64,000 nt of DNA from Halorubrum sodomense (lineage in GTDB: Archaea > Halobacteriota > Halobacteria > Halobacteriales > Haloferacaceae): NCBI RefSeq assembly GCF_900111935.1, contig NZ_FOYN01000002.1:186001-250000 (forward strand), given 5' to 3'. Below are positions 2,986-15,606 of this stretch, piece by piece. The notes below the pieces were generated by a model that had not been told where the DNA came from, ran no database searches, and saw only the letters and a list, made by a program, of their open reading frames with translations. A program made the translations under genes and the position numbers. Each line of letters begins with the position of its first letter. Positions within the stretch are counted from its first letter, which is position 1.

Positions 2986-3888
2986 CTACGCGGTCCGCGC
3001 CCGGTACGCGCGCACGGCGTCGCGGTATCCCGAGCGGAACGTCGGGTGGACGAACTCGTAGCCGAGTTCGCGGAGCAGTTCGTTCGAACACCGCTTACTC
3101 GTCCGGATTCGACGCTCCGCGGCCGCCGAGAGATCCCCCGCCGCGATCCGTTCGTCCTTCGACAGCTTCTCCGGACGCGGGACGCCGCAGGCGTCCGCGA
3201 GCCAGTCCGCGAACGCGTGTTTCTCGACCGGTTCGTCGTCGACGACGAGGACGACGCGGTCGCGAGCGCGGTCCGCCTCCAACAGGTGTCGGATCGATCC
3301 CGCGGCGTCGTCGCGGTGGACCATGTTCAGGTAGCCGGCCGTCACCGGTCCCTCCACGTACCGGTCCAGCCGATACCTATCGGGGCCGTACAGCCCCGTG
3401 AACCGGACGACCGTCCCGTCGATCCCCGCGTCGGTCGCGCGTTCCGTCGCGATCCGTTCGGCCTCGGCGAGGACGCGAGTCTTCTCCGTGGTCGGCTCGA
3501 CCGGCGTCTCCTCGTCGACCCACCCTCCGTCGTGGTCGCCGTACACGCCGGTCGAGGAGGTGTACACCAACCGGTCCGGCCGGGACGACCGCGAGCCGTA
3601 CTCGTCGACGACGTTCGCCAGTCCGTCGACGTACACCTCCCGCGCCGCGTCGGCGCCGCGACCGCCCGAACTGGCCGCGAAGACGACGGCGTCCGCGTCC
3701 GGTAGGGCATCCAGCGACGCCGGGTCAGTCGCGTCCGCGCGGACGGCCTCCACCTCGGGCCCGACGGCCGCGACCGCGTCGAGCCCCGAGTCGGACCGAC
3801 GGACGCCGGTCACCGCGTGGCCGCGGGCGTCGAGCTGTTCCGCCAGCGCTATGCCGACGTAGCCGCAGCCGACGACGACGACCCTCAT
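2986..3888 (-). CDS. NAD(P)-dependent epimerase/dehydratase-like SDR protein
   Basis: A 300-aa Rossmann protein. It opens with the dinucleotide-binding GCGYVG (residues 7-12) and carries VYTSSTGVYGDHDGG, the region that holds the active-site Ser and Tyr in extended SDRs; the usual Lys four residues after Tyr is not evident, which fits atypical YeeZ-like members. Its ATG overlaps the stop of the upstream gene (ATGA at 3885-3888), so the pair is probably translationally coupled. Substrate cannot be inferred; sugar-nucleotide epimerases and NADP-binding repair-type proteins share this fold. Confidence 0.8.
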   Translation of the reverse strand: MRVVVVGCGYVGIALAEQLDARGHAVTGVRRSDSGLDAVAAVGPEVEAVRADATDPASLDALPDADAVVFAASSGGRGADAAREVYVDGLANVVDEYGSRSSRPDRLVYTSSTGVYGDHDGGWVDEETPVEPTTEKTRVLAEAERIATERATDAGIDGTVVRFTGLYGPDRYRLDRYVEGPVTAGYLNMVHRDDAAGSIRHLLEADRARDRVVLVVDDEPVEKHAFADWLADACGVPRPEKLSKDERIAAGDLSAAAERRIRTSKRCSNELLRELGYEFVHPTFRSGYRDAVRAYRARTA

Positions 3889-4337
3889 CGCTTCCGGCGC
3901 TCGACGACTGCGAGTATCTCCGCGAGCTGCCCGAGCGTCATCGCGGTTCGCCCCTCCAGCGCCTGCTGGACCTCCTGGCCGGTGAGATCCGCGTCGATCT
4001 TCGCGGCGATCGCGTCCACGTCGAGCACCGCGGTCGCCATCCCCATCAGCAGGTGGTCGCGGACCTCAGCCACTATCGCGTCCGCGTCGCGGTCCGGATC
4101 CGCCGCCGCGAGGACGGCCGCGGCGTCGGTGAGCGTGACGTCTCCGATGTCGCCGTCGCGGACGGCGGTCGCGTCCGCCTCGGTCAGCCCGACCTCGCCG
4201 GCGAGCCGGTCGGTGTCGATCTCCGACGCCGCCTCCGTCATCACCGCCCCGAAGGCGTCGAGCAGGTCCGCCGCCGTCGTCTCGTCGGCGTCGACGTCGG
4301 GTCCGTGTCCGCCGTCGTCGACGACCTCGTGGAACAT
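3885..4337 (-). CDS. Conserved haloarchaeal protein (DUF5791-like)
   Basis: 150 aa from the ATG at 4337 (MFHEVVDDGG). It is acidic, entirely alpha-helical in character and has no catalytic motif or membrane segment. The start is favoured because GTTTTGAG, a TATA-like box, lies about 25 nt upstream, and the longer frame to 4388 adds only basic non-haloarchaeal sequence (MDASDRRRFETRRRS). The C-terminal part (ALEGRTAMTLGQLAEILAVVERRKR) looks like a short helical docking region. From memory it resembles DUF5791; this is not checked. It is the first gene of a two-gene operon with the SDR protein. Confidence 0.7.
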   Translation of the reverse strand: MFHEVVDDGGHGPDVDADETTAADLLDAFGAVMTEAASEIDTDRLAGEVGLTEADATAVRDGDIGDVTLTDAAAVLAAADPDRDADAIVAEVRDHLLMGMATAVLDVDAIAAKIDADLTGQEVQQALEGRTAMTLGQLAEILAVVERRKR

Positions 4338-4427
4338 ACGCTCACTCCGTCGCCGCGTCTCAAAACGCCTGCGGTCGGACGCGTCCACTCCGGTTCGCGT
4401 CTCTCCACTCCCCGGTTTCTCCGGCTC

Positions 4428-7400
4428 TCACCCCTCCGTACACTCGTCCGCCGCCTCCGGCGACGCGGTCAGCGGTCCCGGACACGGCCAGCCGGCTGAG
4501 GTCTCCTCGCGCGTCCCGTCGACGTCGCCGACCCCCGGCGGCCCCGCCGGGACGGCGACGACGATCACCGTTCTCGTCTCGAACGAGATCGGTTCCGTGG
4601 CACCCAGCGCGATCGACTCGCCGCTCACGTCGATGCGGACTTCGCCGGCGGTTCGGACGTACTCGAACGGGCGCCCGGGCGTCCCGACGTCCGCACGGAG
4701 CGTAAACCGCGGGTACTCCCCGCGCACCCGGACGTTCCACGCGTTGACGGTCGCCACCCAGTACCCGGGAACGGGAGCGACCGGAAGGCCGGCGCCGACG
4801 CTCCGAACGGGCTTCGGAACCCGTTTGTCCGGAATCGACGCGACCGCTTTCTTGCCCCGCCTCTCGATCGCAGACTTGAGCTCGTGCCGTCGGATCGCGC
4901 GGGACGCGGCCGTCGTCGCGTCGACGAAGCGGGCCGGAACGCGGACCGCGTCTCTCCCGGCCGCCGTCCGCGTCTCGACGCGGAGATGCGCCGCGAGCCC
5001 GATCCGCTCGGCCCTCGACAGCGTCCCGATTCGCGCCGCCTCGCGGGCGACTCGGTCCGGGTATTCCCCCTCGCCGACCGCGACGGCTCTGTCTCCGAGC
5101 GAGTCGTATTCGGCCCCGACGTTCTCCAACACCGCCCGCCGCTGCTCGCGAGAGAGATCGGTCCGGTCCGCGAGCCGTTCCGCCAGCGCTTCGTCGATGC
5201 GTCGCAGCGAGGCGTCGACCCGTCCGGCGAGCGCGCGCCGGTCGGCGCGCAGATCCTCGTCGCCTGTCGCCGCGAGCGCCTCCTCCGCCGCGAGGAGCGA
5301 CCGCCCGGCGACCCCGATCCGCACGGTGTCGTCGGTGCCGAGGATCCGGTCCGCGATCCCGCCGGCGACGTCGCTGTACGGGAGCGTGGCGTAGTTCACG
5401 TTCCTGGTCGCGAGCGGTCGCGTCGTCGTGCCGTCGACGCCCTCGATGCGCTCGCCGTCGACCGCGGTCCGCGGCAGGTATCCCGGCGATCCTTCCGGGG
5501 CGAACGTGACGGCGCCGCCCGGGCCCCCGTCACCGACGGCGTAGGTCCCCGGGTCGCGGGCGGCCTCGCGGCTGGCGATCACTTCGCCGACGGGCGGCCC
5601 GCCGAAGGCCTCCTTCACCCGATCGAGGACGCCGTTCGTCGCCGCTTTCCGCCTTTCTGCGGCCGATTCCAGTTCCTCGATAACGGCGTCGAGGTACGCG
5701 ACGCGGGCGGCGACCCGTCCGCGGTCGACCGCGCCGTCGTACCGCCCGGGCGCGTCCCGGAGGGCGTCGCGGCGGTTGCGGACGGTCGCGGCGAGGTCCC
5801 TGTACGGGGTCGACTCGCCGGCCGCCGCGTCGGCCATCGACGCCTCCGTCTCGAGGCTGCGGACGCGGTCCGACAGCGCCGAGACGTCGCTCGCGACCCG
5901 GTCCAGATCCGCCTCCGATCGGGCGCCGTATACGACCGTCGACCGCGTCTCGCCGCCGCCGTCGACGGCGACCCGCGCCAACTGATCGACGTCGGCGTCC
6001 GTCTCGAGGTTCAGTTCCGCCCTCGCGGCCGCCGGCGTGTCGGCGAGATCCGGTCCGTCGACGTCGTTACCACCGGCACCGAACGTCGCCGTCGGTCTGT
6101 CGGGCGCGCCGTCGCGCGGCGCGTACGTTCCAGTCACCGAAACCCGGACGCGGTATCGATCCGACGCCTCGTCGCGCGTCACGGTGCGGTCGACGCTGAC
6201 GTTTCGGACCGTCCCGTTCGGCCCCCGCTCGACGACCCGCCGTTCCCACGTCGCGGTCGCAGCGCGCTCCACGACGACCTCCCGGAGCGCGCCGCCGAAC
6301 GACACCGTCTCGCCGGGCGAAACCGTCTCGCCGTCGGTTCCCGTCCGGAGGTCGGTTCCGTCGACGACCCGGATTTCCTCCCGCCGCGACGTGTCCACTC
6401 GACGCCACGGTTCGGTACGCGACGACCGCGGGCGATCCGGCGTCACCGGGCCGCCGTCGGCGATCCGCGTCGTCTCCGCTTCCACGGTCGCCTCGACGCG
6501 GTGGCTCCCCCGAACGATCTCCTCGAGGTCGTCGTGAACTCGGGTCGCCGCGCGGTCGGCCGCGTGGCCGACCTCGACCGACGCCGTCTCGCCCGTCGGA
6601 TCCGCGGAGGGACTGAACGCCGCGTCTTCGCTCGCCGTCGCGTCTCCGGTCGACGACGCGCCTTCGCCCGCCCCCGTCCCTTCCGCGCCGCTCCCTCTCG
6701 TCGGCGTCGGCGCTCCGAGGACGGCGTCGGTCCACGCGGTCTTGTGGGGCCCCATCGGCGACAGCAGATCGCTCACGCCCGTCCGAGCGGTCGCACGGGC
6801 GACGCCGCCGCGCGCGTCGGGGTCGCTGGCGCCGAACACGTCCCGCTGGACCCGCACGATCCCGGCGTTGGTCGAAAGCTCCACGTGACGGTTCGCGACG
6901 ACGTTCTCGACGGGCGCACCGGCGTACTGGGCGTAGCCGCGGGCCCACGCCATCGCGTAGAGACTGGCGGTGATCTGCCGACCGAGGCCGGCTCCCTCGA
7001 CGGGCCCCCGGTTGAGGCGCGTCTCGAACCGCTCGGTCCGCTCGTGGGCGGCCAGCGTCGGCACGGCGACGGTGACGGTCCGCGATCGCGTCCGGTTCAC
7101 GACGGTTCGGCCGCCCCGGGTCGCGGTCGTCTCGACGCCCTCGAAGGTGACCCGCGTCGCCGTCCCGTTCGCGGCCGATTCGACGCGGACTCGCTCGCGC
7201 GCGGCGACGAGGTCGCGGGCCGACTCGACCGCCGGCAGCGACGCGTCCGCATTGACGCTCCCGGTGTCGCTCTCGACCGCCCCCAACGCCTCCGCCCCGG
7301 CGATCGCGAGCCGGATCCGGAACGCGTCCTCGAAGGCGGATCCCTCGCGGACAGCGCGCGACACCGGTCCCGATCCGTTCGGCGCGTTCGTCACGGGTTC

Positions 7401-7658
7401 CGCGGCCGCGTCGTAGGCGGCCTCGCTGGCCGCGCTCCGGAGCGCGGCGGTCGCGTCGGCGTCGACGCGCTCGACGGCGCGTTCGACCCGCCGGTCCTCC
7501 CCGACGAGCCCCTGCCCGGCGAGTCCCGCGGCGTACGCCGAACTCGTCACGAGCAGCAGTACGCCGACGAGCGCGAAGGGGACTCGAGCCCGCTCGTCGA
7601 CGACGAACGACCGCGCGCTCCGCCCTTCGTTCGACCGATCGCGGCGCAGGTTCCCCAC
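4428..7658 (-). CDS. Large membrane-anchored pilus-cluster protein (DUF7286-like)
   Basis: 1076 aa from a GTG at 7658. The N-terminus is short and basic, then one hydrophobic segment (VPFALVGVLLLVTSSAYA, about residues 27-44) anchors a very long, Thr/Arg/Asp-rich extracytoplasmic domain. The start is fixed by GGAGGTG lying 5-12 nt before the GTG and by the upstream gene ending 2 nt away (TAA at 7661-7663); the open frame to 7913 is only overlap with that gene. Last gene of the operon 9338 to 4428. The N-terminal anchor plus location suggests a pseudopilin- or tip-like component exported by the neighbouring PilB/TadC machine; this is inference. I recall a DUF7286 family at this place in haloarchaeal genomes. 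Confidence 0.8.
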   Translation of the reverse strand: MGNLRRDRSNEGRSARSFVVDERARVPFALVGVLLLVTSSAYAAGLAGQGLVGEDRRVERAVERVDADATAALRSAASEAAYDAAAEPVTNAPNGSGPVSRAVREGSAFEDAFRIRLAIAGAEALGAVESDTGSVNADASLPAVESARDLVAARERVRVESAANGTATRVTFEGVETTATRGGRTVVNRTRSRTVTVAVPTLAAHERTERFETRLNRGPVEGAGLGRQITASLYAMAWARGYAQYAGAPVENVVANRHVELSTNAGIVRVQRDVFGASDPDARGGVARATARTGVSDLLSPMGPHKTAWTDAVLGAPTPTRGSGAEGTGAGEGASSTGDATASEDAAFSPSADPTGETASVEVGHAADRAATRVHDDLEEIVRGSHRVEATVEAETTRIADGGPVTPDRPRSSRTEPWRRVDTSRREEIRVVDGTDLRTGTDGETVSPGETVSFGGALREVVVERAATATWERRVVERGPNGTVRNVSVDRTVTRDEASDRYRVRVSVTGTYAPRDGAPDRPTATFGAGGNDVDGPDLADTPAAARAELNLETDADVDQLARVAVDGGGETRSTVVYGARSEADLDRVASDVSALSDRVRSLETEASMADAAAGESTPYRDLAATVRNRRDALRDAPGRYDGAVDRGRVAARVAYLDAVIEELESAAERRKAATNGVLDRVKEAFGGPPVGEVIASREAARDPGTYAVGDGGPGGAVTFAPEGSPGYLPRTAVDGERIEGVDGTTTRPLATRNVNYATLPYSDVAGGIADRILGTDDTVRIGVAGRSLLAAEEALAATGDEDLRADRRALAGRVDASLRRIDEALAERLADRTDLSREQRRAVLENVGAEYDSLGDRAVAVGEGEYPDRVAREAARIGTLSRAERIGLAAHLRVETRTAAGRDAVRVPARFVDATTAASRAIRRHELKSAIERRGKKAVASIPDKRVPKPVRSVGAGLPVAPVPGYWVATVNAWNVRVRGEYPRFTLRADVGTPGRPFEYVRTAGEVRIDVSGESIALGATEPISFETRTVIVVAVPAGPPGVGDVDGTREETSAGWPCPGPLTASPEAADECTEG

Positions 7659-7660
7659 GC

Positions 7661-8368
7661 TTACCACCTCCGAACGACGATTCGGACGACGCCCTCCGGC
7701 GATCGATCCCCTCCGTCCCCGTCGCTGATCCCGCCGGGGATCGGCTGCCTGATGACCACGGCGGCGACGTCCGCGTTCCGCGGCGGCTCGGGACCGACGG
7801 CGATCGGATCCCGAGTCGCGGTCGCGGTACCGCTCTCGTCGCCCCCGCCGACCGTCCGCGTCGGCTCCCTCCCGACGGCGATCGAGAACGGATGTGCCGG
7901 CTTCTCGATCCACCCGAGGCGGGCCCCGTCGCGCCCTCTGGGCGGGGACCGCTCGTCCGGACTCCGCGCCGTCGGAGCGGCCGCAGTCTCTCGATTTCCG
8001 CCGTTCACCGCGGCGTCGACGGCACCGGTGCCGTCCGTCTCCCCGTCGACTTCCACCGTCGCGTCGACCCGCGTTCGCGGACCGAGTCCGGCACGGATGG
8101 ATTCGGTGGCTCGCCGTTCGAACGCCCCGTCCGCGTCCCGCTCGGCGAGCAGCGCGAGCAGCTCCGCGCGGGTCGCGTGGACCCGTCGCGTTCCGTTCGG
8201 CGCGGTACCGTCGCGGTACGTCACGGTCGCGGTCTCGGTGACGAGCCGATCCGCGGCGTCCGTCGCCGTCGGACCGTCCGGGCCGCCGGCGTCGCTCGCG
8301 CCGAGCGCGACGACGCTCGCGGAGACGCAGAGCAGCAGCACGCTCACGTCGAGGACGGTGCTGGTCAC
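7661..8368 (-). CDS. Pseudopilin-like membrane protein (DUF7284-like)
   Basis: 235 aa from a GTG at 8368 whose sequence GTGA overlaps the stop of the preceding gene, giving translational coupling. The first 27 residues (TSTVLDVSVLLLCVSASVV) form one hydrophobic N-terminal segment with almost no positively charged leader, followed by an extracellular-type domain rich in Thr, Asp and Gly. No catalytic motif. Third gene of the operon starting at 9338. The short hydrophobic N-terminus and gene order suggest a minor pilin or pseudopilin-like subunit; from memory it matches DUF7284. Confidence 0.72.
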   Translation of the reverse strand: MTSTVLDVSVLLLCVSASVVALGASDAGGPDGPTATDAADRLVTETATVTYRDGTAPNGTRRVHATRAELLALLAERDADGAFERRATESIRAGLGPRTRVDATVEVDGETDGTGAVDAAVNGGNRETAAAPTARSPDERSPPRGRDGARLGWIEKPAHPFSIAVGREPTRTVGGGDESGTATATRDPIAVGPEPPRNADVAAVVIRQPIPGGISDGDGGDRSPEGVVRIVVRRW

Positions 8369-8841
8369 CGCCACACCACCGCCCGAAGGGTTCCGCGAAC
8401 GTTCCGGCCGGGCGCCACCCGAACCGTCACCCGCCGCTCGGCGACCGCGACGGCGTCCGGCGACCGCGCTCCGGGCGGTCCCGGGGCGTCCGGACCCGAC
8501 GCGGCCAGCCACCGCTCGCCGTTCGCCTCCAGCTCGATCGCCGTCGCGGTTCCCGGCGCTTCGACTCTCCGCAGCCGCCTCGGATCGACGACGCCGCCGA
8601 CGGTGACCGCTCGTTCGGCGCGGTCGAGGGCCGCCTCCGCGGCCCGTCCGGATCGGTCGGGTGCGGCGTCGTCGAGCGCGCCGGCGTACAGGCCGAGCGC
8701 GAGGCCGACGACCGTCACCGCGACGAGCGCGGCGATCGGTTCGACGGCGGCGCGGTCGGACGCCGAGAGCGACGCGATCGGTCCCTCGCTCGTCGCAGTC
8801 GCGTTCGGTCTCGCGGGATCTCGTGACATCCGCGCGATCAC
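8365..8841 (-). CDS. Pseudopilin-like membrane protein (DUF7285-like)
   Basis: 158 aa. After a 30-residue hydrophilic leader the sequence DRAAVEPIAALVAVTVVGLALGLYAG resembles the H-domain of type IV pilins: a small residue run with one acidic residue (Glu) just inside the hydrophobic helix. A PibD-type cleavage before AAVEP is possible but the leader lacks the classical Arg/Lys-Gly pair. GTGA overlaps the stop of the upstream gene at 8838-8841; an ATG at 8829 (MSRDPARP) is an alternative start. Second gene of the 9338 operon. From memory the family is DUF7285. Confidence 0.72.
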   Translation of the reverse strand: MIARMSRDPARPNATATSEGPIASLSASDRAAVEPIAALVAVTVVGLALGLYAGALDDAAPDRSGRAAEAALDRAERAVTVGGVVDPRRLRRVEAPGTATAIELEANGERWLAASGPDAPGPPGARSPDAVAVAERRVTVRVAPGRNVRGTLRAVVWR

Positions 8842-9338
8842 CCGACGAGCGTGACGCGGACGTCTCCGTAGTGTACCCGTCGGACCGTGATCCGCTCCGG
8901 AGCGGCCGTCCAGGGAGCTTCGATCGATCGCGCGCGCTCGGCCGCCGCCGCGAACGACGCCGGATCGTCGAACGCTGCGTCGGGGGGAACGCCGTCGAGG
9001 ACGCGTCGAAGCCGCGCGTCAGTCGTCGCGTTCGATTCCCCCCGGGCCTCCGGTCGTATCACCGGCGTAATCCGCGGTGCGTCGAACGCCGCCCGTGCGG
9101 TCCCCGTCCCGCCCGTGAGCGAGACCGATCCGGTCGTGAGTCGGATCCGCTCCGCCGCGATTCCGTGTTCGGCGGTCGCGGGGTACTCCCCGTCAGCGAC
9201 CGAGTCGATCGTGTGCGCGACGCCGTCGGCGTCTGGCGGCGGCGAGGCCGGAAACGCCGCGGCCACGCCGGCCGTCGCGACGCTCACCACGGCTAAGCCG
9301 AGCCACGCGTACGTCGCGTCGAGGTTCGTCTCGAACAT
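8838..9338 (-). CDS. Membrane-anchored pilus-cluster protein (DUF7283-like)
   Basis: 166 aa. It starts MFETNLDATYAW and has one N-terminal hydrophobic segment (WLGLAVVSVATAGVAAAF, residues 12-29), then a soluble domain that probably faces outward. It is the first gene of the four-gene pseudopilin-like operon (9338 to 4428), reading from a strong TATA box exactly 22 nt before this ATG. All junctions downstream are overlapping or nearly so. Function unknown; position directly behind the TadC-like gene and the shared promoter sequence with the PilB-like gene argue that it belongs to the same export or pilus apparatus. Confidence 0.78.
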   Translation of the reverse strand: MFETNLDATYAWLGLAVVSVATAGVAAAFPASPPPDADGVAHTIDSVADGEYPATAEHGIAAERIRLTTGSVSLTGGTGTARAAFDAPRITPVIRPEARGESNATTDARLRRVLDGVPPDAAFDDPASFAAAAERARSIEAPWTAAPERITVRRVHYGDVRVTLVG

Positions 9339-9349
9339 GGGGCGGCTGG

Positions 9350-9376
9350 CCGCGGCTTCGTATATAAATGATCGGC
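9350..9376 (-). promoter_or_regulatory. Promoter of the pseudopilin-like operon
   Basis: Minus-strand TATA box TTTATATA (9361-9368) ends 22 nt before the ATG at 9338, so the mRNA is probably leaderless. The plus-strand block TCGTATATAAATGATCGGC (9358-9376) and a CCGCGG at 9350-9355 recur, with one mismatch and identical spacing, in front of the PilB-like gene at 13272-13298. Confidence 0.8.
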
Positions 9377-9424
9377 GCCGGGGAGCCGGTTCCGCCCGTC
9401 GTCGCACTCGCCGCCGTCGGCCCC

Positions 9425-11239
9425 TCACAACAGGAGCCCGGCGCCGGCGAACGCGACGAGGAACGTCGCGGTGGCCGTCGGCAGCGCGATGCCGATCCGG
9501 TAGGCCACCAGCGTCCGGTCGAATCCGCGTTCCAGCCCGGTCGCCAACCCGGTGAGGAGCGCGGCGAGCAGCAGCACGTACGCCCCCACGATCCGCCCGA
9601 GCACCGGTACCGACAGGGCTCCCGAAGCACCGGTCGCACCGTTTCCCCCCGCCGCCGCCGTCCCGCTTTTCGCCCCCGCGCCTCCGCCGAGCGCGTCCGC
9701 CCCTGCGGCCGCCCCGGCCCCGAGCCCGCCGACGTCGACCGTCTCGATCCCCGTCGCGAGCGCGACGGTCGCTCCGCCCACGAGCGGCGCGAACACGGCC
9801 GCGGTGTTCGAGAGCGTTCCCGTTACCGTCGCGAGCTGGCGTCGCGCGTCGCGTTCGAGGTCGCGCAGGGCCTCCAGCTGATCCGCGAGCTCCAACAGGA
9901 CGTCGCCCGCCGGGCGGCCCTCCCGCGCGGCGACGGCGAGGAGCGCGATCGCGCCGCGGAGCCTGGGCGACGGAACGTCGGCCGCCGGCCCGCCCCGTCC
10001 GAGAAACGCCTCGCGGACGCCCACTCGGAGCGTGTCGCTGCGCCGCCCGGCGCGCTCGAACACCTCGCCGGTCGCGCCGTCGAGCCGATCGCCGGCGTTC
10101 GCGACCGCGGTCTCGACCGCGACGCCCTCGGCCACGTCCCCGCCGATCACGGTCATCGCGTCCGGGAGCCCTCGCTCGACCTCGCGGACGTCCGACAGCA
10201 CGGCCCGCCGGGGTCTCACGAGGACGAACAGCGCCGTTCCGATACCGACGCCGACTCCCGCGACCGGCCACGCCCACGGCGCGACGGCTCGCGCGGCCAC
10301 GACGGCCGCCGCCGCCCCGAGGACGCAGCCGACGAGGAGCGCGCGGCCACTTCGATCCGGTACGTCGGGATGATCTCCGCTGATGCGCGGCGGCGGAAAC
10401 GCGACCGGTCGACGCGAGAGCAACCACGCCGAGGCGGCGACCAGCCCTCCGGGAAGCACGACGAGATACAGCCCGGCGACGAGCCCGGGACCGATCGCGA
10501 CGCCGGCGGCGGCGCCCGCGGGGAGCAGCGCGATGAGCGCCAGCGGCAGTAGCACTCCGAACGCGTACAGCGCGGAGACCGGTCCCCGAACCGCCCCGAC
10601 GAACGACGCGAGTCGGTCCGTCGTTCCGGAGAGCGTCGCGTCGAGCGCGCGGTCCAGACACCGCCCGCGACGCTCCGGCGGCGCGGTCGCCGCCGTTCGG
10701 ACGAGCGCCGCGGCGCGATCGATCGCGGGGAACCAGGGGCGCCACTCCCGGGCGAACGCCTGAATCCCGCTCGTCGGCCCGTCGGCGCTCCCGCGCTCGT
10801 GTCGGGAAAGCGCCGCCGCCAGCGGTCCGTCCCCGGTCCGGGCGGCGAACCGCACGGCGCGCTCGGTCGAGGGGTCGAGTCGCATCCGTAACACGAGTCG
10901 ACCGACGAGCCCCGGCGCCGCGCCGAGCGCCCGCGTCCGCCGAAGCGACGCGAGCCACACCGGCGCCCGGTGGATCGCGTGTACGCCGCCGACTGCCGCG
11001 GCCAACCCCGCCGGCACGGCCGCAACCGCACCGGCGACGAGGGCCGTGACGACGGTGACCGCGGCGCCGACGGCGACGCCGATCCGGTACCCGGCGGCGA
11101 CGACGCGCTCCGCGGTGCTCTCCCATCCGAGGAACGCGACCGCACGCCGCAGTTCCTCCGAGGCGGTCGATTCGTCCGCCGTAGCCGACCCGCCCGCCGT
11201 AGCCGACCCGTCCGCGTCTGCCGATCGCGTCTCGCTCAT
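9425..11239 (-). CDS. TadC/PilC-like T2SS-F platform membrane protein
   Basis: 604 aa, an integral inner platform protein of archaeal type IV pilus/T2SS systems. Several hydrophobic blocks are visible (for example AAVTVVTALVAGAVAAVPAG, YAFGVLLPLALIALLPAGAA, and the last 45 residues), and it has two T2SSF-type modules, as is usual for archaeal TadC proteins of this length. The cytoplasmic centre contains ATPase-contacting helices. Its ATG overlaps the stop of the PilB-like gene (ATGA, 11236-11239), so both are made together. The N-terminal 35 residues are a low-complexity Ser/Ala/Asp leader with an imperfect SATADES-type repeat. Confidence 0.85.
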   Translation of the reverse strand: MSETRSADADGSATAGGSATADESTASEELRRAVAFLGWESTAERVVAAGYRIGVAVGAAVTVVTALVAGAVAAVPAGLAAAVGGVHAIHRAPVWLASLRRTRALGAAPGLVGRLVLRMRLDPSTERAVRFAARTGDGPLAAALSRHERGSADGPTSGIQAFAREWRPWFPAIDRAAALVRTAATAPPERRGRCLDRALDATLSGTTDRLASFVGAVRGPVSALYAFGVLLPLALIALLPAGAAAGVAIGPGLVAGLYLVVLPGGLVAASAWLLSRRPVAFPPPRISGDHPDVPDRSGRALLVGCVLGAAAAVVAARAVAPWAWPVAGVGVGIGTALFVLVRPRRAVLSDVREVERGLPDAMTVIGGDVAEGVAVETAVANAGDRLDGATGEVFERAGRRSDTLRVGVREAFLGRGGPAADVPSPRLRGAIALLAVAAREGRPAGDVLLELADQLEALRDLERDARRQLATVTGTLSNTAAVFAPLVGGATVALATGIETVDVGGLGAGAAAGADALGGGAGAKSGTAAAGGNGATGASGALSVPVLGRIVGAYVLLLAALLTGLATGLERGFDRTLVAYRIGIALPTATATFLVAFAGAGLLL

Positions 11240-13260
11240 CGCTCGTCACCCCCGCGTTTCGGCGTTTCCCCGCCGTGTGAACCGCCTGATCGGTCGTCGG
11301 TCTCGTCGGTTCCACCGCCGACCCCGTCGCCTCCGGCGTACCGCCTCGGCGCGGTCCGTCCCGCTCGAACCGCCTCGCGAATCCGGTCACTCCGGCTGTC
11401 GACGACGTCTCGAACCGCCGCGTACGACTCGTTTGGGGCGCCGAGCCCCTCGATTAACCGACTCTCGCCGCGGTCGATTCGCCCCGTCCCCACGAGCCCT
11501 CGATCGGTCCGCTCGAACAGCGGGTCGAAGCTCACGCCGCCGTCGTGGTCGTCTACCTCGACGATCGACTCGACGCGGTGGTAATCGAGAACCGCGATCA
11601 GGTCGGTCGCGGCGAACGACGAGCGCGCGACTCCGAGATCGGTGACGACGCGCTCTTCGACCGCCGCCGGGTCCTCGCCGTGGATCGTCCCCAGCACCGT
11701 CTCGCCGGCGGCGCCGACGCGCATCGCCTCGTACAGCGCCTGTGCCTCCTCGCCGCGCACCTCGCCGACGGTGATCGCGCCGCCGCCCATGCGGAGCGCC
11801 GTCCGGACGGCGTCCGCCGGCGCGAGTTCGGCCCCGTCCCCGACGCGGAGCCGCTGGGTGTCCCGCCCGGCGTCCGCGAGGGCGTCCACCGGGAGTTCCG
11901 GCGTGTCTTCGATGGCGACCGTTCTGGTCCCGGCGGGCAGTTCCCACAACAGCGACCCGAGCGCCGTCGTCTTCCCGGCCGCTCGCCCGCCGGCTATCAG
12001 CCCCGTCACGCCCCGTTCGACCGCGACCGACAACAGCCCGGCGGCCGCGGGCGTGAGCGTGTCCGCGGACACCAGCCGGGCGAGCGTCCACGCCTCCGGG
12101 TCGCCGCGTCGGAAGGTGAACGAGAGCCCGTCGCTGGCGGGCGCCGTGGTCGCGGCGACCCGAACGCGACCGGTCTCCGACTCGATCGTCGCGTCGAGCG
12201 TCGGCGTCGCCCGCGAGAACGCCCGGCCGCTCGACCGTCGAAGCCGCGACGCGAGCGTGGCGGCCCCCTCCGGAGGGAGTCGCACGTTCGTCCGGCACCG
12301 CTCGCCGTCGAGGACCACGCGCAGGGGGTTCTCCGCGACCGGCGCCGTCACCGTCGCGTCGCTCACCCTCTCGTCGGCGAACACGTGTTCGAACACCCCG
12401 TAGCCGTGGGTGTGTCGCCGCAGTATCTCGGTCAGGTCCGCGACCGGATCGCCGCCGTCAGCGGCCGCTCGGACCGCCCGTCCGGGCGCCCTGTCGCCGC
12501 CGCCGGGATCGTCGAGCAGCCGCTTCCGCGCGGCGGCGAGCGTCGCCGCGGCGTCGGCGTTCAGGTCGGTCGTCGGCGGCGTGAGGTGGTACGTTCGGAG
12601 CGAGTCGTCGCCCGCGTAGAGCCGGACCGTCGCGCCGGTCGGCACCGTCCAGCGGTCGACCAGCGTCGCGCCCGGAGGCGGCGCGGCAGCGACGCGCGCG
12701 GTCGCGGCCGTCGGCCCGACGTGCGCCCGCAAGATCCCCTCCAGGTCGCGGTCGCCGTCGGCCTCGATCCCGCCTCCGCTCAGTTCTTCGACGGCCGACA
12801 GCAGCCCGGTTTCACGCGCGATCCGCTTCGCGGAGCCCGCGCGTCCGCTCGCCTCCCTCGCCGCGCCGAGCGGCTCGCGGACGACTCGGTCGGCGAGCCG
12901 CTCTTCGTGGAACTCGACCCGCTCGGCGAACCGGCCCGCGGCGACCAGGAAATCGGCCGCGCCGTCGGCGTAGGACCGCTCCCGTCCGCGGTGCCGAGTC
13001 CTGATCACGTCGGCGCCGCGGTCGGTGAGCGCCGCGATAACGGTCGCGAGGCAGTCTCGGCTCGCTGCGAGGTCGCCCCGCCCGGGACAGTCGTCGGCGT
13101 CGACGTCGAGCACCACCCGGTCCTCGACGCCCGTTCCCACGGGCTCGCGGAACGTCGGATCGCACCGACATTCGCCGGGGTCATCGTCGATCCACGGGAG
13201 CGCCCGGAGCGGCGTCCCGCCGACTCCGTCGGCGACGCCCGCGCTGAGATCCAAATTCAT
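11236..13260 (-). CDS. PilB/TadA-like type II/IV secretion ATPase
   Basis: 674-aa hexameric assembly ATPase powering a pilus or secretion system at the cytoplasmic membrane. The C-terminal RecA-like domain has Walker A GGRAAGKT at 424-431, the Asp box EDTPELP near 451 and Walker B AITVGE at 495-500 followed by VRGEEA. The N-terminal 250 residues are specific to haloarchaeal members and include Cys31, Cys33, Cys58 and Cys70, a spacing that could bind a metal. The ATG at 13260 lies 22 nt after a perfect TATA box. First gene of an operon with the TadC-like gene. It is not accompanied by an obvious prepilin peptidase in this window. Confidence 0.88.
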   Translation of the reverse strand: MNLDLSAGVADGVGGTPLRALPWIDDDPGECRCDPTFREPVGTGVEDRVVLDVDADDCPGRGDLAASRDCLATVIAALTDRGADVIRTRHRGRERSYADGAADFLVAAGRFAERVEFHEERLADRVVREPLGAAREASGRAGSAKRIARETGLLSAVEELSGGGIEADGDRDLEGILRAHVGPTAATARVAAAPPPGATLVDRWTVPTGATVRLYAGDDSLRTYHLTPPTTDLNADAAATLAAARKRLLDDPGGGDRAPGRAVRAAADGGDPVADLTEILRRHTHGYGVFEHVFADERVSDATVTAPVAENPLRVVLDGERCRTNVRLPPEGAATLASRLRRSSGRAFSRATPTLDATIESETGRVRVAATTAPASDGLSFTFRRGDPEAWTLARLVSADTLTPAAAGLLSVAVERGVTGLIAGGRAAGKTTALGSLLWELPAGTRTVAIEDTPELPVDALADAGRDTQRLRVGDGAELAPADAVRTALRMGGGAITVGEVRGEEAQALYEAMRVGAAGETVLGTIHGEDPAAVEERVVTDLGVARSSFAATDLIAVLDYHRVESIVEVDDHDGGVSFDPLFERTDRGLVGTGRIDRGESRLIEGLGAPNESYAAVRDVVDSRSDRIREAVRAGRTAPRRYAGGDGVGGGTDETDDRSGGSHGGETPKRGGDER

Positions 13261-13271
13261 GGCGGGCGTGC

Positions 13272-13298
13272 CCGCGGTATCGTATATAAACGATCGGC
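13272..13298 (-). promoter_or_regulatory. Promoter of the PilB-TadC operon
   Basis: Minus-strand TATA box TTTATATA (13283-13290) with 22 nt to the ATG at 13260. The plus-strand block TCGTATATAAACGATCGGC (13280-13298) and CCGCGG (13272-13277) match the promoter at 9350-9376 with the same spacing. Confidence 0.8.
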
Positions 13299-13332
13299 TC
13301 GCCGAACCGGAGCGGCCCTCGGTCGCTCCGAT

Positions 13333-13797
13333 TCACCCGACCCGACTGATCCGGATCGTCGGTCCCCCGTCGTCGACGTACTGGACCCGAATGCGGCTCG
13401 CCCCGCCCGGGCGGAGTTCGATCGGTCCGCCGACGAGTTCGACCGCCGTCCGCGCGGGTCCCGTTCCGATCCGAAACTCGCGCTCGGGCCGGTCGCCGAC
13501 CCGGTACGCGAGCGCGGCGCTCCCCGGTCGGTCGGGCGATTCCACGAGCGCGACGCGGTCGACGTCCGCCGCGGCGAATCCGGTCGGAACGCGGACGAGG
13601 ACGGTCGTCTGCGCCGCCATCGCGGGGTCGCCCACGGGCGTCGATCCGGAGACGACGCCCCCGATCGCCCGCTCCAACCGGTCCGCCTCGGCACCGATCC
13701 GGTCGGTCGTCGTCGTCGTCCGAGCCGTCTCGATCGCTGGCATCGACGCCGCGAGCAGCGCGACCGCCACGAGGACGGTGAGCACCACGCGGATCAC
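13333..13797 (-). CDS. Signal-anchored pilus-cluster protein (DUF7311-like)
   Basis: 154 aa from a GTG at 13797, 7 nt after the stop of the coiled-coil gene. The N-terminus is one hydrophobic signal or anchor segment (VIRVVLTVLVAVALLAASMPAI without the last residue counted as mature start), followed by a beta-rich, outward-facing domain ending in VQYVDDGGPTIRISRVG. The frame is open to 13914, but that part overlaps the preceding gene and is Thr/Ala-rich shadow sequence. Second gene of the 14452 operon; from memory DUF7311, whose gene normally sits beside DUF7310. A role in the pilus-like machine is inferred from location only. Confidence 0.7.
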   Translation of the reverse strand: MIRVVLTVLVAVALLAASMPAIETARTTTTTDRIGAEADRLERAIGGVVSGSTPVGDPAMAAQTTVLVRVPTGFAAADVDRVALVESPDRPGSAALAYRVGDRPEREFRIGTGPARTAVELVGGPIELRPGGASRIRVQYVDDGGPTIRISRVG

Positions 13798-13804
13798 GGC
13801 TCGG

Positions 13805-14452
13805 TCACAGCGACTCCCGGAGCCGGTCGAGCGCGTCGGCCGCCCACGCGTCGCCGTCGCCGCTTCCGTCGCCGTCGGCGTCTCGACCGAGGGACCCGTC
13901 GCCGCCCCCGTCACGCGGTCCCGACGCGGAACGGTCGTCGGGAAGCGCGGCGTCGAGGGCGCTCTCCGAGGGCACGGCGTCGCCGGTGTCGTCGGTCGGC
14001 GTCGCGTCGCGCCGTCGAGACCGGCGATCGGATCGGTCGGCGGCGGCGTCCCCGCGCTCCCCGCTCCGCTCGCGGGCTCCGTCGACCTCCCGGCCGGCTT
14101 CCGTCGCCCGTGCCAGCGCGAGGTCGGCCCGCCGCTCGACCTCGCGGTTGACCGCCCTGACCGACCCCGCGTAGCCGCGGATCGCCTGGGTCGCCGCCTC
14201 CAACTCCGCGACGCGCTCCTCGAGGTCGTCGAGCCGCGATTCGAGCCGATCGCGCTCGGCCGTCGCCTCCGCGTCCGCGACGGCGTCGGCCGGCCGCGCG
14301 TCGCTCCCGGTCACCGCGCGCTCGACGGCGCGGAGGCGGGACTCGATCCGGTCGGTCGACCCGTTCGCTCCGGTCGTCGCCTCCGTCCCCGGCCTCGGCG
14401 GCGCCGCGTCCGTTTCCGCTCCCGGACCGGCGCTCTGTCCGTTGTCGCTCAT
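13805..14452 (-). CDS. Coiled-coil protein (DUF7310-like)
   Basis: 215 aa, acidic and soluble. Residues about 40-125 have a clear heptad pattern (RLESRLDDLEERVAELEAA), then a long disordered Asp/Gly/Arg-rich tail with a final amphipathic end AADALDRLRESL. The ATG at 14452 (MSDNGQSAG) is preferred to the upstream start at 14476 because TTTAAG lies about 25 nt before it. It heads the operon with the signal-anchored protein at 13797 and is transcribed away from the CetZ gene 74 nt distant. Could be a cytoplasmic scaffold; function is unknown. Confidence 0.75.
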   Translation of the reverse strand: MSDNGQSAGPGAETDAAPPRPGTEATTGANGSTDRIESRLRAVERAVTGSDARPADAVADAEATAERDRLESRLDDLEERVAELEAATQAIRGYAGSVRAVNREVERRADLALARATEAGREVDGARERSGERGDAAADRSDRRSRRRDATPTDDTGDAVPSESALDAALPDDRSASGPRDGGGDGSLGRDADGDGSGDGDAWAADALDRLRESL

Positions 14453-14526: not shown

Positions 14527-15606
14527 ATGAAGGCAGTCCTCCTCGGCGTCGGACAGGCGGGCGGCAAGCTCACGACCGCCCTCGCGGAGTTCGACGCCGA
14601 CGCCGGCTACGGCGCGGTCCTCGACGCGCTCGCCGTCAACACCGCCGCGGCCGACCTCGACCCCCTCCCGCTCGAAACGGTCCTCGTCGGGCAGTCGCGC
14701 GTCAACGGCCACGGCGTCGGCGGCGACAACGAACTCGGCGCGGAAGTGATGGACGAGGACGCCGTCGAGGTGCTCGACGCGCTCGCCCCGAAGGTCACCG
14801 CGGCGGCCGAGGCGGTGTTCGTCGTCGCGGGCCTGGGCGGCGGGACGGGCTCCGGCGGCGCGCCGGTCCTCGTCCGCGAGCTGAACCGGGTGTACGACGT
14901 GCCCGTCTACGCGATCGGTATCCTCCCCGGCCGCGACGAGGGGACGATGTATCAGGTGAACGCCGGGCGGTCGCTCAAGACGCTCGTCCGCGAGGCGGAC
15001 GCGACGATCCTGCTCGACAACGACGCGTGGCGCTCCTCGGGGGAGTCCATGGAGGGCGGCTACGAGGCGATCAACGCCTCGATGGCGAAGCGGATCGGGC
15101 TCATCTTGGCGGCCGGCGAGGCGGTCGAGGGCGTCGGTGAGTCCGTCGTCGACACGAGCGAGGTGATCAACACGCTCCGCGCGGGCGGGATGGCCGCCGT
15201 CGGCTTCGCCTCGGCGCCCGCGGCCGAGGACGCGGAGGAGAACGTCACCACGGTGACGAGCGCGGTCCGCAGCGCGGTGATGACCGGGCTCTCCCTGCCG
15301 AACGCCACCGACGCCGACGCGGCCCTCGTCGCGGTCGCCGGCGACCCGGACCGGATCTCGCGGAAGGGCGCGGAGAAGGCCCGCAAGTGGCTCCAAGAGG
15401 AGACGGGCTCGATGCAGGTCCGCGGCGGCGACTTCCCGCTCGACTCCGACCGGATCGCCGCCTTGGTCCTCCTCGCGGGCGTCGAGCGTTCCCAGCGGGT
15501 GGAGGCGTTCTTGGAGCGCGCCAGGCAGGCGGTCCGCGACGAGCCCGAGGAGAAGTCCGACCCGGCGGCCGCGTTCGAGAACGACGAGATCGACGACCTG
15601 CTGTGA
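14527..15606 (+). CDS. cetZ: CetZ-family tubulin-like protein
   Basis: 359-aa cytoskeletal GTPase of the archaeal FtsZ/tubulin superfamily. The N-terminal GQAGG (9-13) and the GTP-binding G-box GGGTGSG (104-110) are intact, and the nucleotide-contacting loop NDAWR/NASMAKRIG region is present. CetZ proteins polymerise under the membrane; CetZ1 of Haloferax controls rod shape and motility, other paralogs are less known. The sequence lacks the FtsZ C-terminal tail and ends in an acidic FENDEIDDLL. It stands alone on the plus strand, divergent from the pilus-like cluster. Which CetZ subgroup it belongs to I cannot decide from sequence alone. Confidence 0.93.
   Translation: MKAVLLGVGQAGGKLTTALAEFDADAGYGAVLDALAVNTAAADLDPLPLETVLVGQSRVNGHGVGGDNELGAEVMDEDAVEVLDALAPKVTAAAEAVFVVAGLGGGTGSGGAPVLVRELNRVYDVPVYAIGILPGRDEGTMYQVNAGRSLKTLVREADATILLDNDAWRSSGESMEGGYEAINASMAKRIGLILAAGEAVEGVGESVVDTSEVINTLRAGGMAAVGFASAPAAEDAEENVTTVTSAVRSAVMTGLSLPNATDADAALVAVAGDPDRISRKGAEKARKWLQEETGSMQVRGGDFPLDSDRIAALVLLAGVERSQRVEAFLERARQAVRDEPEEKSDPAAAFENDEIDDLL

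What the first reader, a model, noticed from the sequence alone, without database searches (positions are those of the whole stretch)
4428..14452. Uncharacterised pilus/secretion-like machine with four anchored subunits
A PilB-like ATPase, a TadC-like platform and four proteins with single N-terminal hydrophobic helices (166, 158, 235 and 1076 aa), plus coiled-coil and signal-anchored proteins, form three abutting operons. The subunits lack the usual haloarchaeal class III leader (Arg/Lys-Gly before Gln-Ser), and no prepilin peptidase or classical pilin is present. The 1076-aa protein is far larger than a pilin and could be a tip adhesin or an exported effector.
Basis: partly seen in the sequence, partly recalled or inferred. 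Interest (0 to 1): 0.6.

Follow-up and report, generated by a model that had tools for sequence, protein, structure and literature searches.

The report
Known-type archaeal pilus locus beside CetZ
The window holds a salt-loving archaeon's copy of a conserved eight-gene set for building a pilus-like surface machine next to a tubulin-like gene; the set was already predicted in genome surveys, but its very large surface subunit and the loss of a processing signal in one subunit are new details that can be tested.

Summary
On the minus strand (14452-4428) of a Halorubrum-like genome lie, in order, DUF7310 coiled coil, DUF7311, VirB11/PilB-type ATPase, TadC-type platform, DUF7283, DUF7285, DUF7284 and 1076-aa DUF7286. 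All eight genes occur together in 35 of 40 Halobacteria loci sampled mostly one per genus. A CetZ gene stands divergently next door.

This is not an unknown machine. It matches the subclade-4F type IV pilus system of Makarova 2016 and the cetZ2-adjacent pilB2/C2 regulon of Brown & Duggin 2023; no paper in the library searched names the DUFs.

DUF7285 (RA|AVEP) and DUF7286 (RA|RVPF) keep a class III-type site. DUF7284 lost its leader in the window's family only (0 of 16 loci, against 25 of 25 others). One prepilin peptidase and six PilA-type pilins are encoded elsewhere in the genome.

Methanogens carry DUF7285-DUF7284-DUF7286 (four genomes) and, unlinked, one matching ATPase with a cysteine-rich N-terminus (13 of 14 genomes).

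Best reading: a type IV pilus-like assembly machine with DUF7286 as its large surface or tip subunit. Neither predicted fold (DUF7285, DUF7286) has a significant PDB match. Function is inferred.

The parts
13805..14452 (-). DUF7310 coiled-coil protein, cytoplasmic; likely the coiled-coil arCOG07564 of 4F loci (arCOG match not tested)
   Evidence: Pfam PF23991 E=1.4e-27; no hydrophobic segment
13333..13797 (-). DUF7311, single N-terminal hydrophobic helix, starts without a leader; fifth candidate pilin-like subunit
   Evidence: Pfam PF23993 E=2.7e-36; profile match to a methanogen gene that has a KG|AD-type leader, E=9e-9
11236..13260 (-). VirB11/PilB-type secretion ATPase (PilB2-like, subclade 4F-like)
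   Evidence: PF00437; Walker A GGRAAGKT, ITVGEVR and GTIH boxes; closest solved: GspE-type 2oap, CpaF, FlaI; tree
9425..11239 (-). TadC/PilC-type membrane platform, about 8 hydrophobic segments
   Evidence: weak PF00482, segments, conserved next to the ATPase also in methanogens
8838..9338 (-). DUF7283, N-terminal anchor, no class III site
   Evidence: PF23954 E=4.2e-49
8365..8829 (-). DUF7285 pilin-like subunit, leader ...SDRA|AVEPIAALVAV (start at conserved Met, 154 aa; 158 aa from GTG 8841)
   Evidence: PF23956 E=9.6e-28; conserved Met; AlphaFold2 pLDDT 82.6, kinked helix 35-79 and four strands
7661..8368 (-). DUF7284 pilin-like subunit, leaderless here (starts VTSTVLDV; others RA|ISTVLDV)
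   Evidence: PF23955 E=2e-8; clade comparison
4428..7658 (-). DUF7286, 1076-aa surface subunit, leader DERA|RVPFALVGVLLL then a large ectodomain
   Evidence: PF23957 1064 bits; AlphaFold2 pLDDT 77.8, helix 28-47, mixed alpha/beta ectodomain, C-terminal beta domain 969-1037
14527..15606 (+). CetZ tubulin-like GTPase, divergent neighbour (CetZ2 by synteny)
   Evidence: PF21011 E=1.5e-62, PF00091; CetZ in 28 of 40 loci sampled mostly one per genus
13272..13295 (-). TATA-box promoter of ATPase-TadC
   Evidence: GATCGTTTATATACGATACCGCGG
9350..9373 (-). TATA-box promoter of the DUF7283-7285-7284-7286 block
   Evidence: GATCATTTATATACGAAGCCGCGG
3885..4388 (-). DUF5791, conserved downstream neighbour, probably not part of the machine
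   Evidence: PF19104 E=5.5e-40; synteny
2986..3888 (-). NAD-dependent epimerase-like gene, conserved neighbour
   Evidence: PF01370; synteny

Best explanation
The locus encodes an archaeal type IV pilus-like assembly machine, the haloarchaeal pilB2/C2 system next to cetZ2 (subclade 4F). SHOWN by sequence: a VirB11/TadA-type ATPase with intact nucleotide-binding motifs, a TadC platform, single-pass subunits of which DUF7285 and DUF7286 carry class III-type sites here, co-conservation as one cassette, and near-identical promoters for the motor and subunit blocks. INFERRED: PibD, encoded elsewhere, trims DUF7285 and DUF7286. DUF7284 in this family, and DUF7283 and DUF7311 in all haloarchaea, are made already without a leader. 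The ATPase drives the TadC platform to lift these low-copy pilin-like subunits out of the membrane as an initiating or tip complex. DUF7286 is the large surface-exposed (tip or adhesin-like) part, anchored by a pilin-like helix. Any bulk filament subunit would come from PilA-type pilins encoded elsewhere. DUF7310 and CetZ would be cytoplasmic partners that couple or position the machine.
For: Gene content. Eight-gene conservation, 35 of 40 loci. Split loci keep the orthologous ATPase elsewhere (47-58% identity), and six genomes without DUF7286 have only distant paralogues (34% at best). Of 14 methanogen genomes with DUF7286, 13 have exactly one close ATPase (37-48% identity), usually beside a TadC. 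The ATPase groups with the methanogen Cys-rich ATPases apart from the genome's other paralogues, 99/97 support. Class III-type sites like RA|VS, RA|QI and KA|IS sites of characterised archaeal pilins (PMC4371748). DUF7285 model: N-terminal helix then a four-stranded sheet. Shared promoters. Literature match.
Against: No major pilin in the locus and no experiment on this system's filament. Foldseek gives no significant PDB match for DUF7285 or DUF7286, so a pilin fold is not confirmed. DUF7283 is not significantly related to its methanogen positional counterpart. Hbt. salinarum pil-2, probably the same system, has an in-frame stop in pilC2 (PMC4292770), so it may be dispensable in some strains.
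Confidence: 0.6

Rival explanations
1. A short pseudopilus or bindosome-like machine with no long filament: it places or secretes the giant DUF7286 protein, or unlinked cargo, at the cell surface.
For: Four or five different single-copy subunits and no repeated major pilin in the cassette; three subunits lack leaders, unusual for filament pilins; DUF7286 is far larger than its partners and conserved along its whole length.
Against: Six PilA-type pilins exist elsewhere in the genome, and haloarchaeal PilB/C are known to use pilins encoded in trans (PMC4858521; PMC6491452). No cargo gene travels consistently with the cassette in the loci examined.
Confidence: 0.25
2. A cell-cell contact or DNA-transfer device rather than a surface-adhesion pilus.
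For: The ATPase also scores with conjugation ATPases TrbB/VirB11 and the locus adjoins a cytoskeletal GTPase.
Against: VirB11-type ATPases are shared by all archaeal pili; no relaxase, coupling protein or DNA-processing gene was found in the cassette. In H. volcanii cetZ2 expression falls at most time points under mating conditions (PMC7749143).
Confidence: 0.07
3. A decaying remnant in the Halorubrum lineage, given the lost leaders.
For: DUF7284 and others lack processing sites; one relative of the same genus, G152, has stop codons inside both ATPase and DUF7286.
Against: All reading frames and ATPase motifs are intact in the window, promoters are kept, and leaderless DUF7284 is fixed across 16 loci of the family, nearly all with the rest of the cassette intact.
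Confidence: 0.05

Closest known systems
Subclade 4F archaeal type IV pilus system (Makarova, Koonin, Albers 2016, PMC4858521)
   Same: VirB11-type ATPase plus TadC, coiled-coil protein, ftsZ-family gene next door in Halobacteria, methanogen ATPase relatives with a Cys-rich N-terminus
   Different: Their PilA-family major pilins are not in this locus; DUF7311 as a pilin-like subunit and methanogen counterparts of the subunit block are not stated in the text I read; arCOG identities could not be checked
cetZ2-adjacent pilB2/C2 regulon (Brown & Duggin 2023, PMC9856176)
   Same: cetZ next to pilB/C, with a hypothetical gene, an epimerase and a phosphoesterase-type gene nearby; shown for H. volcanii and Halorubrum lacusprofundi
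   Different: They list arCOGs only; in the text I read there is no analysis of leaders, subunit order or the giant subunit
Halobacterium salinarum pil-2 locus (Losensky 2015, PMC4292770)
   Same: haloarchaea-specific pilB2/pilC2 with putative pilins; pilB2 induced 8.5-fold in adherent cells
   Different: pilC2 has an in-frame stop there; sequence identity to this locus not tested
H. volcanii PilA/PilB3-C3 adhesion pili
   Same: PilB/PilC motor logic and RA|VS-type processing sites
   Different: Different ATPase group; the subunits here are not PilA/Pilin_N proteins
Bacterial minor pilin/pseudopilin tip complexes (FimU-PilV-PilW-PilX with PilY1; GspH-I-J-K), from general knowledge
   Same: several unequal low-copy subunits plus, in the pilus case, a very large surface protein in one operon
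   Different: No sequence or fold match found; analogy only

Membership tests
Subclade 4F archaeal type IV pilus system | VirB11-family secretion ATPase with adjacent TadC | tested here: met
   adjacency conserved
Subclade 4F archaeal type IV pilus system | ATPase clade with variable Cys-rich N-terminal domain, strongest in methanogens | tested here: met
   closest methanogen ATPases have 6-13 Cys in the first 300 residues; window ATPase keeps CRC...C...C; they form one clade with 99/97 support. Makarova's own tree was not reproduced
Subclade 4F archaeal type IV pilus system | Coiled-coil component (arCOG07564) and ftsZ-like gene (arCOG02202) in halobacterial loci | tested here: met
   DUF7310 coiled coil and CetZ present; arCOG numbers themselves not testable
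Subclade 4F archaeal type IV pilus system | Pilin subunits with class III signal peptides | tested here: inconclusive
   met by DUF7285 and DUF7286 in the window, lost in DUF7284 here, absent in DUF7283 and DUF7311; FlaFind was not available
Subclade 4F archaeal type IV pilus system | Dedicated PilA-family major pilin (arCOG02981 or arCOG10216), often stand-alone | not testable with these tools
   six Pilin_N proteins elsewhere in the genome, not assignable to arCOGs here
PilA-type (Pilin_N) pilins | Pfam PF07790 match in the four subunits | tested here: not met
   no PF07790 hit among the subunits
Type IV pilin/pseudopilin fold | long N-terminal helix followed by an antiparallel beta sheet, matching solved pilins | tested here: inconclusive
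   DUF7285 model has helix plus four strands but no PDB match below E=0.1
cetZ2-pilB2/C2 regulon | cetZ2 adjacent to pilB/C with epimerase and hypothetical gene conserved | tested here: met
   CetZ2 versus CetZ1 assignment rests on synteny only

The most novel reading that the evidence does not exclude
In one haloarchaeal family a pilus-type subunit (DUF7284) has dropped its prepilin leader, so that translation starts at the former cleavage point and the subunit enters the assembly machine already mature, independent of prepilin peptidase. DUF7283 and DUF7311 may have done the same earlier, in a machine whose tip is a 1000-aa protein of unrecognised fold.
Probability: 0.3. Interest if true: 0.6.

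Novelty: already known. Interest (0 to 1): 0.35.

Why it matters
It links six unnamed Pfam families (DUF7283-7286, DUF7310, DUF7311) to a published but unstudied pilus system present in about three quarters of the Halobacteria genomes sampled, and extends the subunit set to methanogens. The clade-specific loss of the DUF7284 leader offers a natural test of whether prepilin cleavage is needed for every pilus-type subunit, and the giant DUF7286 is a concrete candidate for a pilus tip in a group with tractable genetics.

Tried and rejected
Literature search for the DUF names: zero papers. A guess that H. volcanii pilB2 is HVO_1034: not supported by the papers found. Foldseek of DUF7285 and DUF7286 against PDB: only insignificant hits, ignored. 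PDB sequence search with DUF7286 and DUF7285 profiles: nothing meaningful. Homology of DUF7283 to the methanogen gene in the same position: not significant, so only positional equivalence is claimed. The idea that the subunit families stand free of any dedicated ATPase in some Halobacteria: rejected for G116, G123, G173, G045 and G174, whose orthologous ATPase lies elsewhere; G044 is a possible true case. The apparent lack of a DUF7284 leader in L057 was a start-codon choice of my script (one search corrects).
Full report
WHAT IS THERE. The window is part of a 3.03-Mb haloarchaeal genome. Its DUF7286 is 84% identical to that of Halorubrum trapanicum, so it is a Halorubrum or very close to it. 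Eight genes lie on the minus strand between 14452 and 4428: DUF7310, DUF7311, a T2SSE/VirB11 ATPase, a TadC-like membrane protein, DUF7283, DUF7285, DUF7284 and DUF7286. The ATPase has Walker A (GGRAAGKT), ITVGEVR and GTIH boxes; its nearest solved relatives are the GspE-type protein 2oap, CpaF and FlaI. Two nearly identical TATA-box promoters precede the ATPase and DUF7283, and TATA-like sites recur in front of DUF7283 in 28 of 39 loci against 1 of 351 control windows. The motor block and the subunit block therefore probably respond together.

A CetZ tubulin-like gene lies divergently at 14527-15606. Downstream come DUF5791, an epimerase and a DHH protein. This is the gene neighbourhood that Brown & Duggin 2023 describe as the cetZ2-associated pilB2/C2 type IV pilus regulon of Haloferacales and Halobacteriales (PMC9856176). 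Makarova et al. 2016 describe the subclade-4F pilus systems of Halobacteria as having a coiled-coil protein (arCOG07564) and an ftsZ-like gene (PMC4858521). The pil-2 locus of Halobacterium salinarum is probably the same system (PMC4292770); I did not test that by sequence. Legerme and Pohlschroder place H. volcanii PilB2 in subclade 4C (PMC6491452), which conflicts with the 4F features seen here. The system is therefore known by prediction, not by experiment, and no paper in the library used here names these DUFs.

CONSERVATION. DUF7286 is found in 187 of 242 Halobacteria genomes. I fetched 40 loci, mostly one per genus; all eight genes are present in 35, one is cut by a contig end, and four are split. 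CetZ is in the fetched stretch of 28 of the 40. In five genomes of split-locus lineages the orthologous ATPase is elsewhere at 47-58% identity; six genomes without DUF7286 have only distant paralogues, 34% identical at best. Motor and subunits are thus mostly kept or lost together. G044 keeps DUF7285, DUF7284 and DUF7286 without an orthologous ATPase; G152, of the window's genus, has stops in both ATPase and DUF7286.

BEYOND HALOBACTERIA. DUF7286 also occurs in other families of the phylum. I examined 14 of these genomes and all carry methyl-coenzyme M reductase, so they are methanogens or close kin. Thirteen of the 14 have exactly one ATPase close to the window's (37-48% identity; next best 33% or less). 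These ATPases have a cysteine-rich N-terminus, with TadC next to them in 12 of the 13 stretches, as Makarova describes for 4F. In a tree they form the sister group of the haloarchaeal cassette ATPases, apart from the window genome's other paralogues (some paralogues have long branches). Four genomes of one methanogen family keep the order DUF7311-like, an unassigned gene, DUF7285, DUF7284, DUF7286. The DUF7311 link is supported by profile comparison (E=9e-9); the unassigned gene is not significantly similar to DUF7283.

LEADERS. In 41 sampled loci DUF7286 always begins [KR][GA]|x[VIL]P[FL]A and DUF7285 begins [KR][GA]|xx[EDST]P in 35. Both motifs survive in the window (ERA|RVPF, DRA|AVEP). These resemble sites of characterised archaeal pilins such as RA|VS, RA|QI and KA|IS (PMC4371748). 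DUF7284 has R[GA]|x[SN][TA] in 25 of 25 loci outside the window's family and in 0 of 16 inside it, where the protein typically starts MTSTVLD or VTSTVLD; in the window that start overlaps the stop of DUF7285. By alignment the initiator sits at the old -1 position. In the methanogens the five genes have mostly [DN][DE]x[GA]-type N-termini, which suggests leaders were ancestral; this is a reading by eye, not a statistical test. DUF7283 and DUF7311 lack such sites in Halobacteria. The prepilin peptidase is encoded elsewhere in the genome, as are six Pilin_N matches (one of them holds a stop).

STRUCTURES. AlphaFold2 gives DUF7285 a kinked N-terminal helix and four strands (mean pLDDT 82.6). DUF7286 has one membrane helix (28-47) and a large folded ectodomain ending in a beta domain (pLDDT 77.8). 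Foldseek against PDB finds nothing below E=0.1 for either. The pilin-like topology of DUF7285 is suggestive, not proven; DUF7286 has no recognised fold.

MECHANISM. The best reading is a type IV pilus-like machine whose motor assembles several low-copy pilin-like subunits, with DUF7286 as the large surface or tip part. Processing by PibD, tip position, filament formation and any role of CetZ or DUF7310 are inferred. The chief rival is a short pseudopilus or surface-assembly device without a long filament.

LIMITS. The gene calls in other genomes use my own iterative profiles. The 77 named loci are largely Halorubrum and are not independent evidence. CetZ counts are limited by the length of the stretches fetched. 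CetZ2 identity, arCOG numbers and subclade 4F placement rest on synteny, described features and a small tree.

Noticed in passing
L069:3425-7051 (minus strand): DUF7286 reads in frame into the downstream DUF5791 gene, giving one fused open frame; a real fusion, or a lost stop or sequencing error.
   Followed up: no
L155:13102-13716, L156:12895-13473, L160:8267-8854, L162:12189-12788: In the methanogen loci read, a small secreted protein with a conserved 'Y(F)NG ... GEPF' region lies next to DUF7286; a possible partner not seen in Halobacteria.
   Followed up: no
L165:3-3772, L161:14630-17909: Stand-alone 270-330-aa proteins match part of DUF7286 (C-terminal by the Pfam coordinates) in tandem or near a full-length copy, suggesting that this domain works on its own.
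   Followed up: no
G152:C1:30421-37986: A relative of the same genus carries in-frame stops in both the ATPase and DUF7286, so the system is decaying in some strains.
   Followed up: partly
L155:6817-7332 and L156:7027-7467 (minus strand): Methanogen coiled-coil proteins with a C-terminal hydrophobic segment next to the subunit genes resemble DUF7310 (E=3.5e-3 for one), so this component may not be unique to Halobacteria.
   Followed up: partly
window genome G000 (C6:190837, C8:201040, C8:770254): Three CetZ genes in the genome; only the C8:201040 one adjoins the pilus cassette.
   Followed up: no
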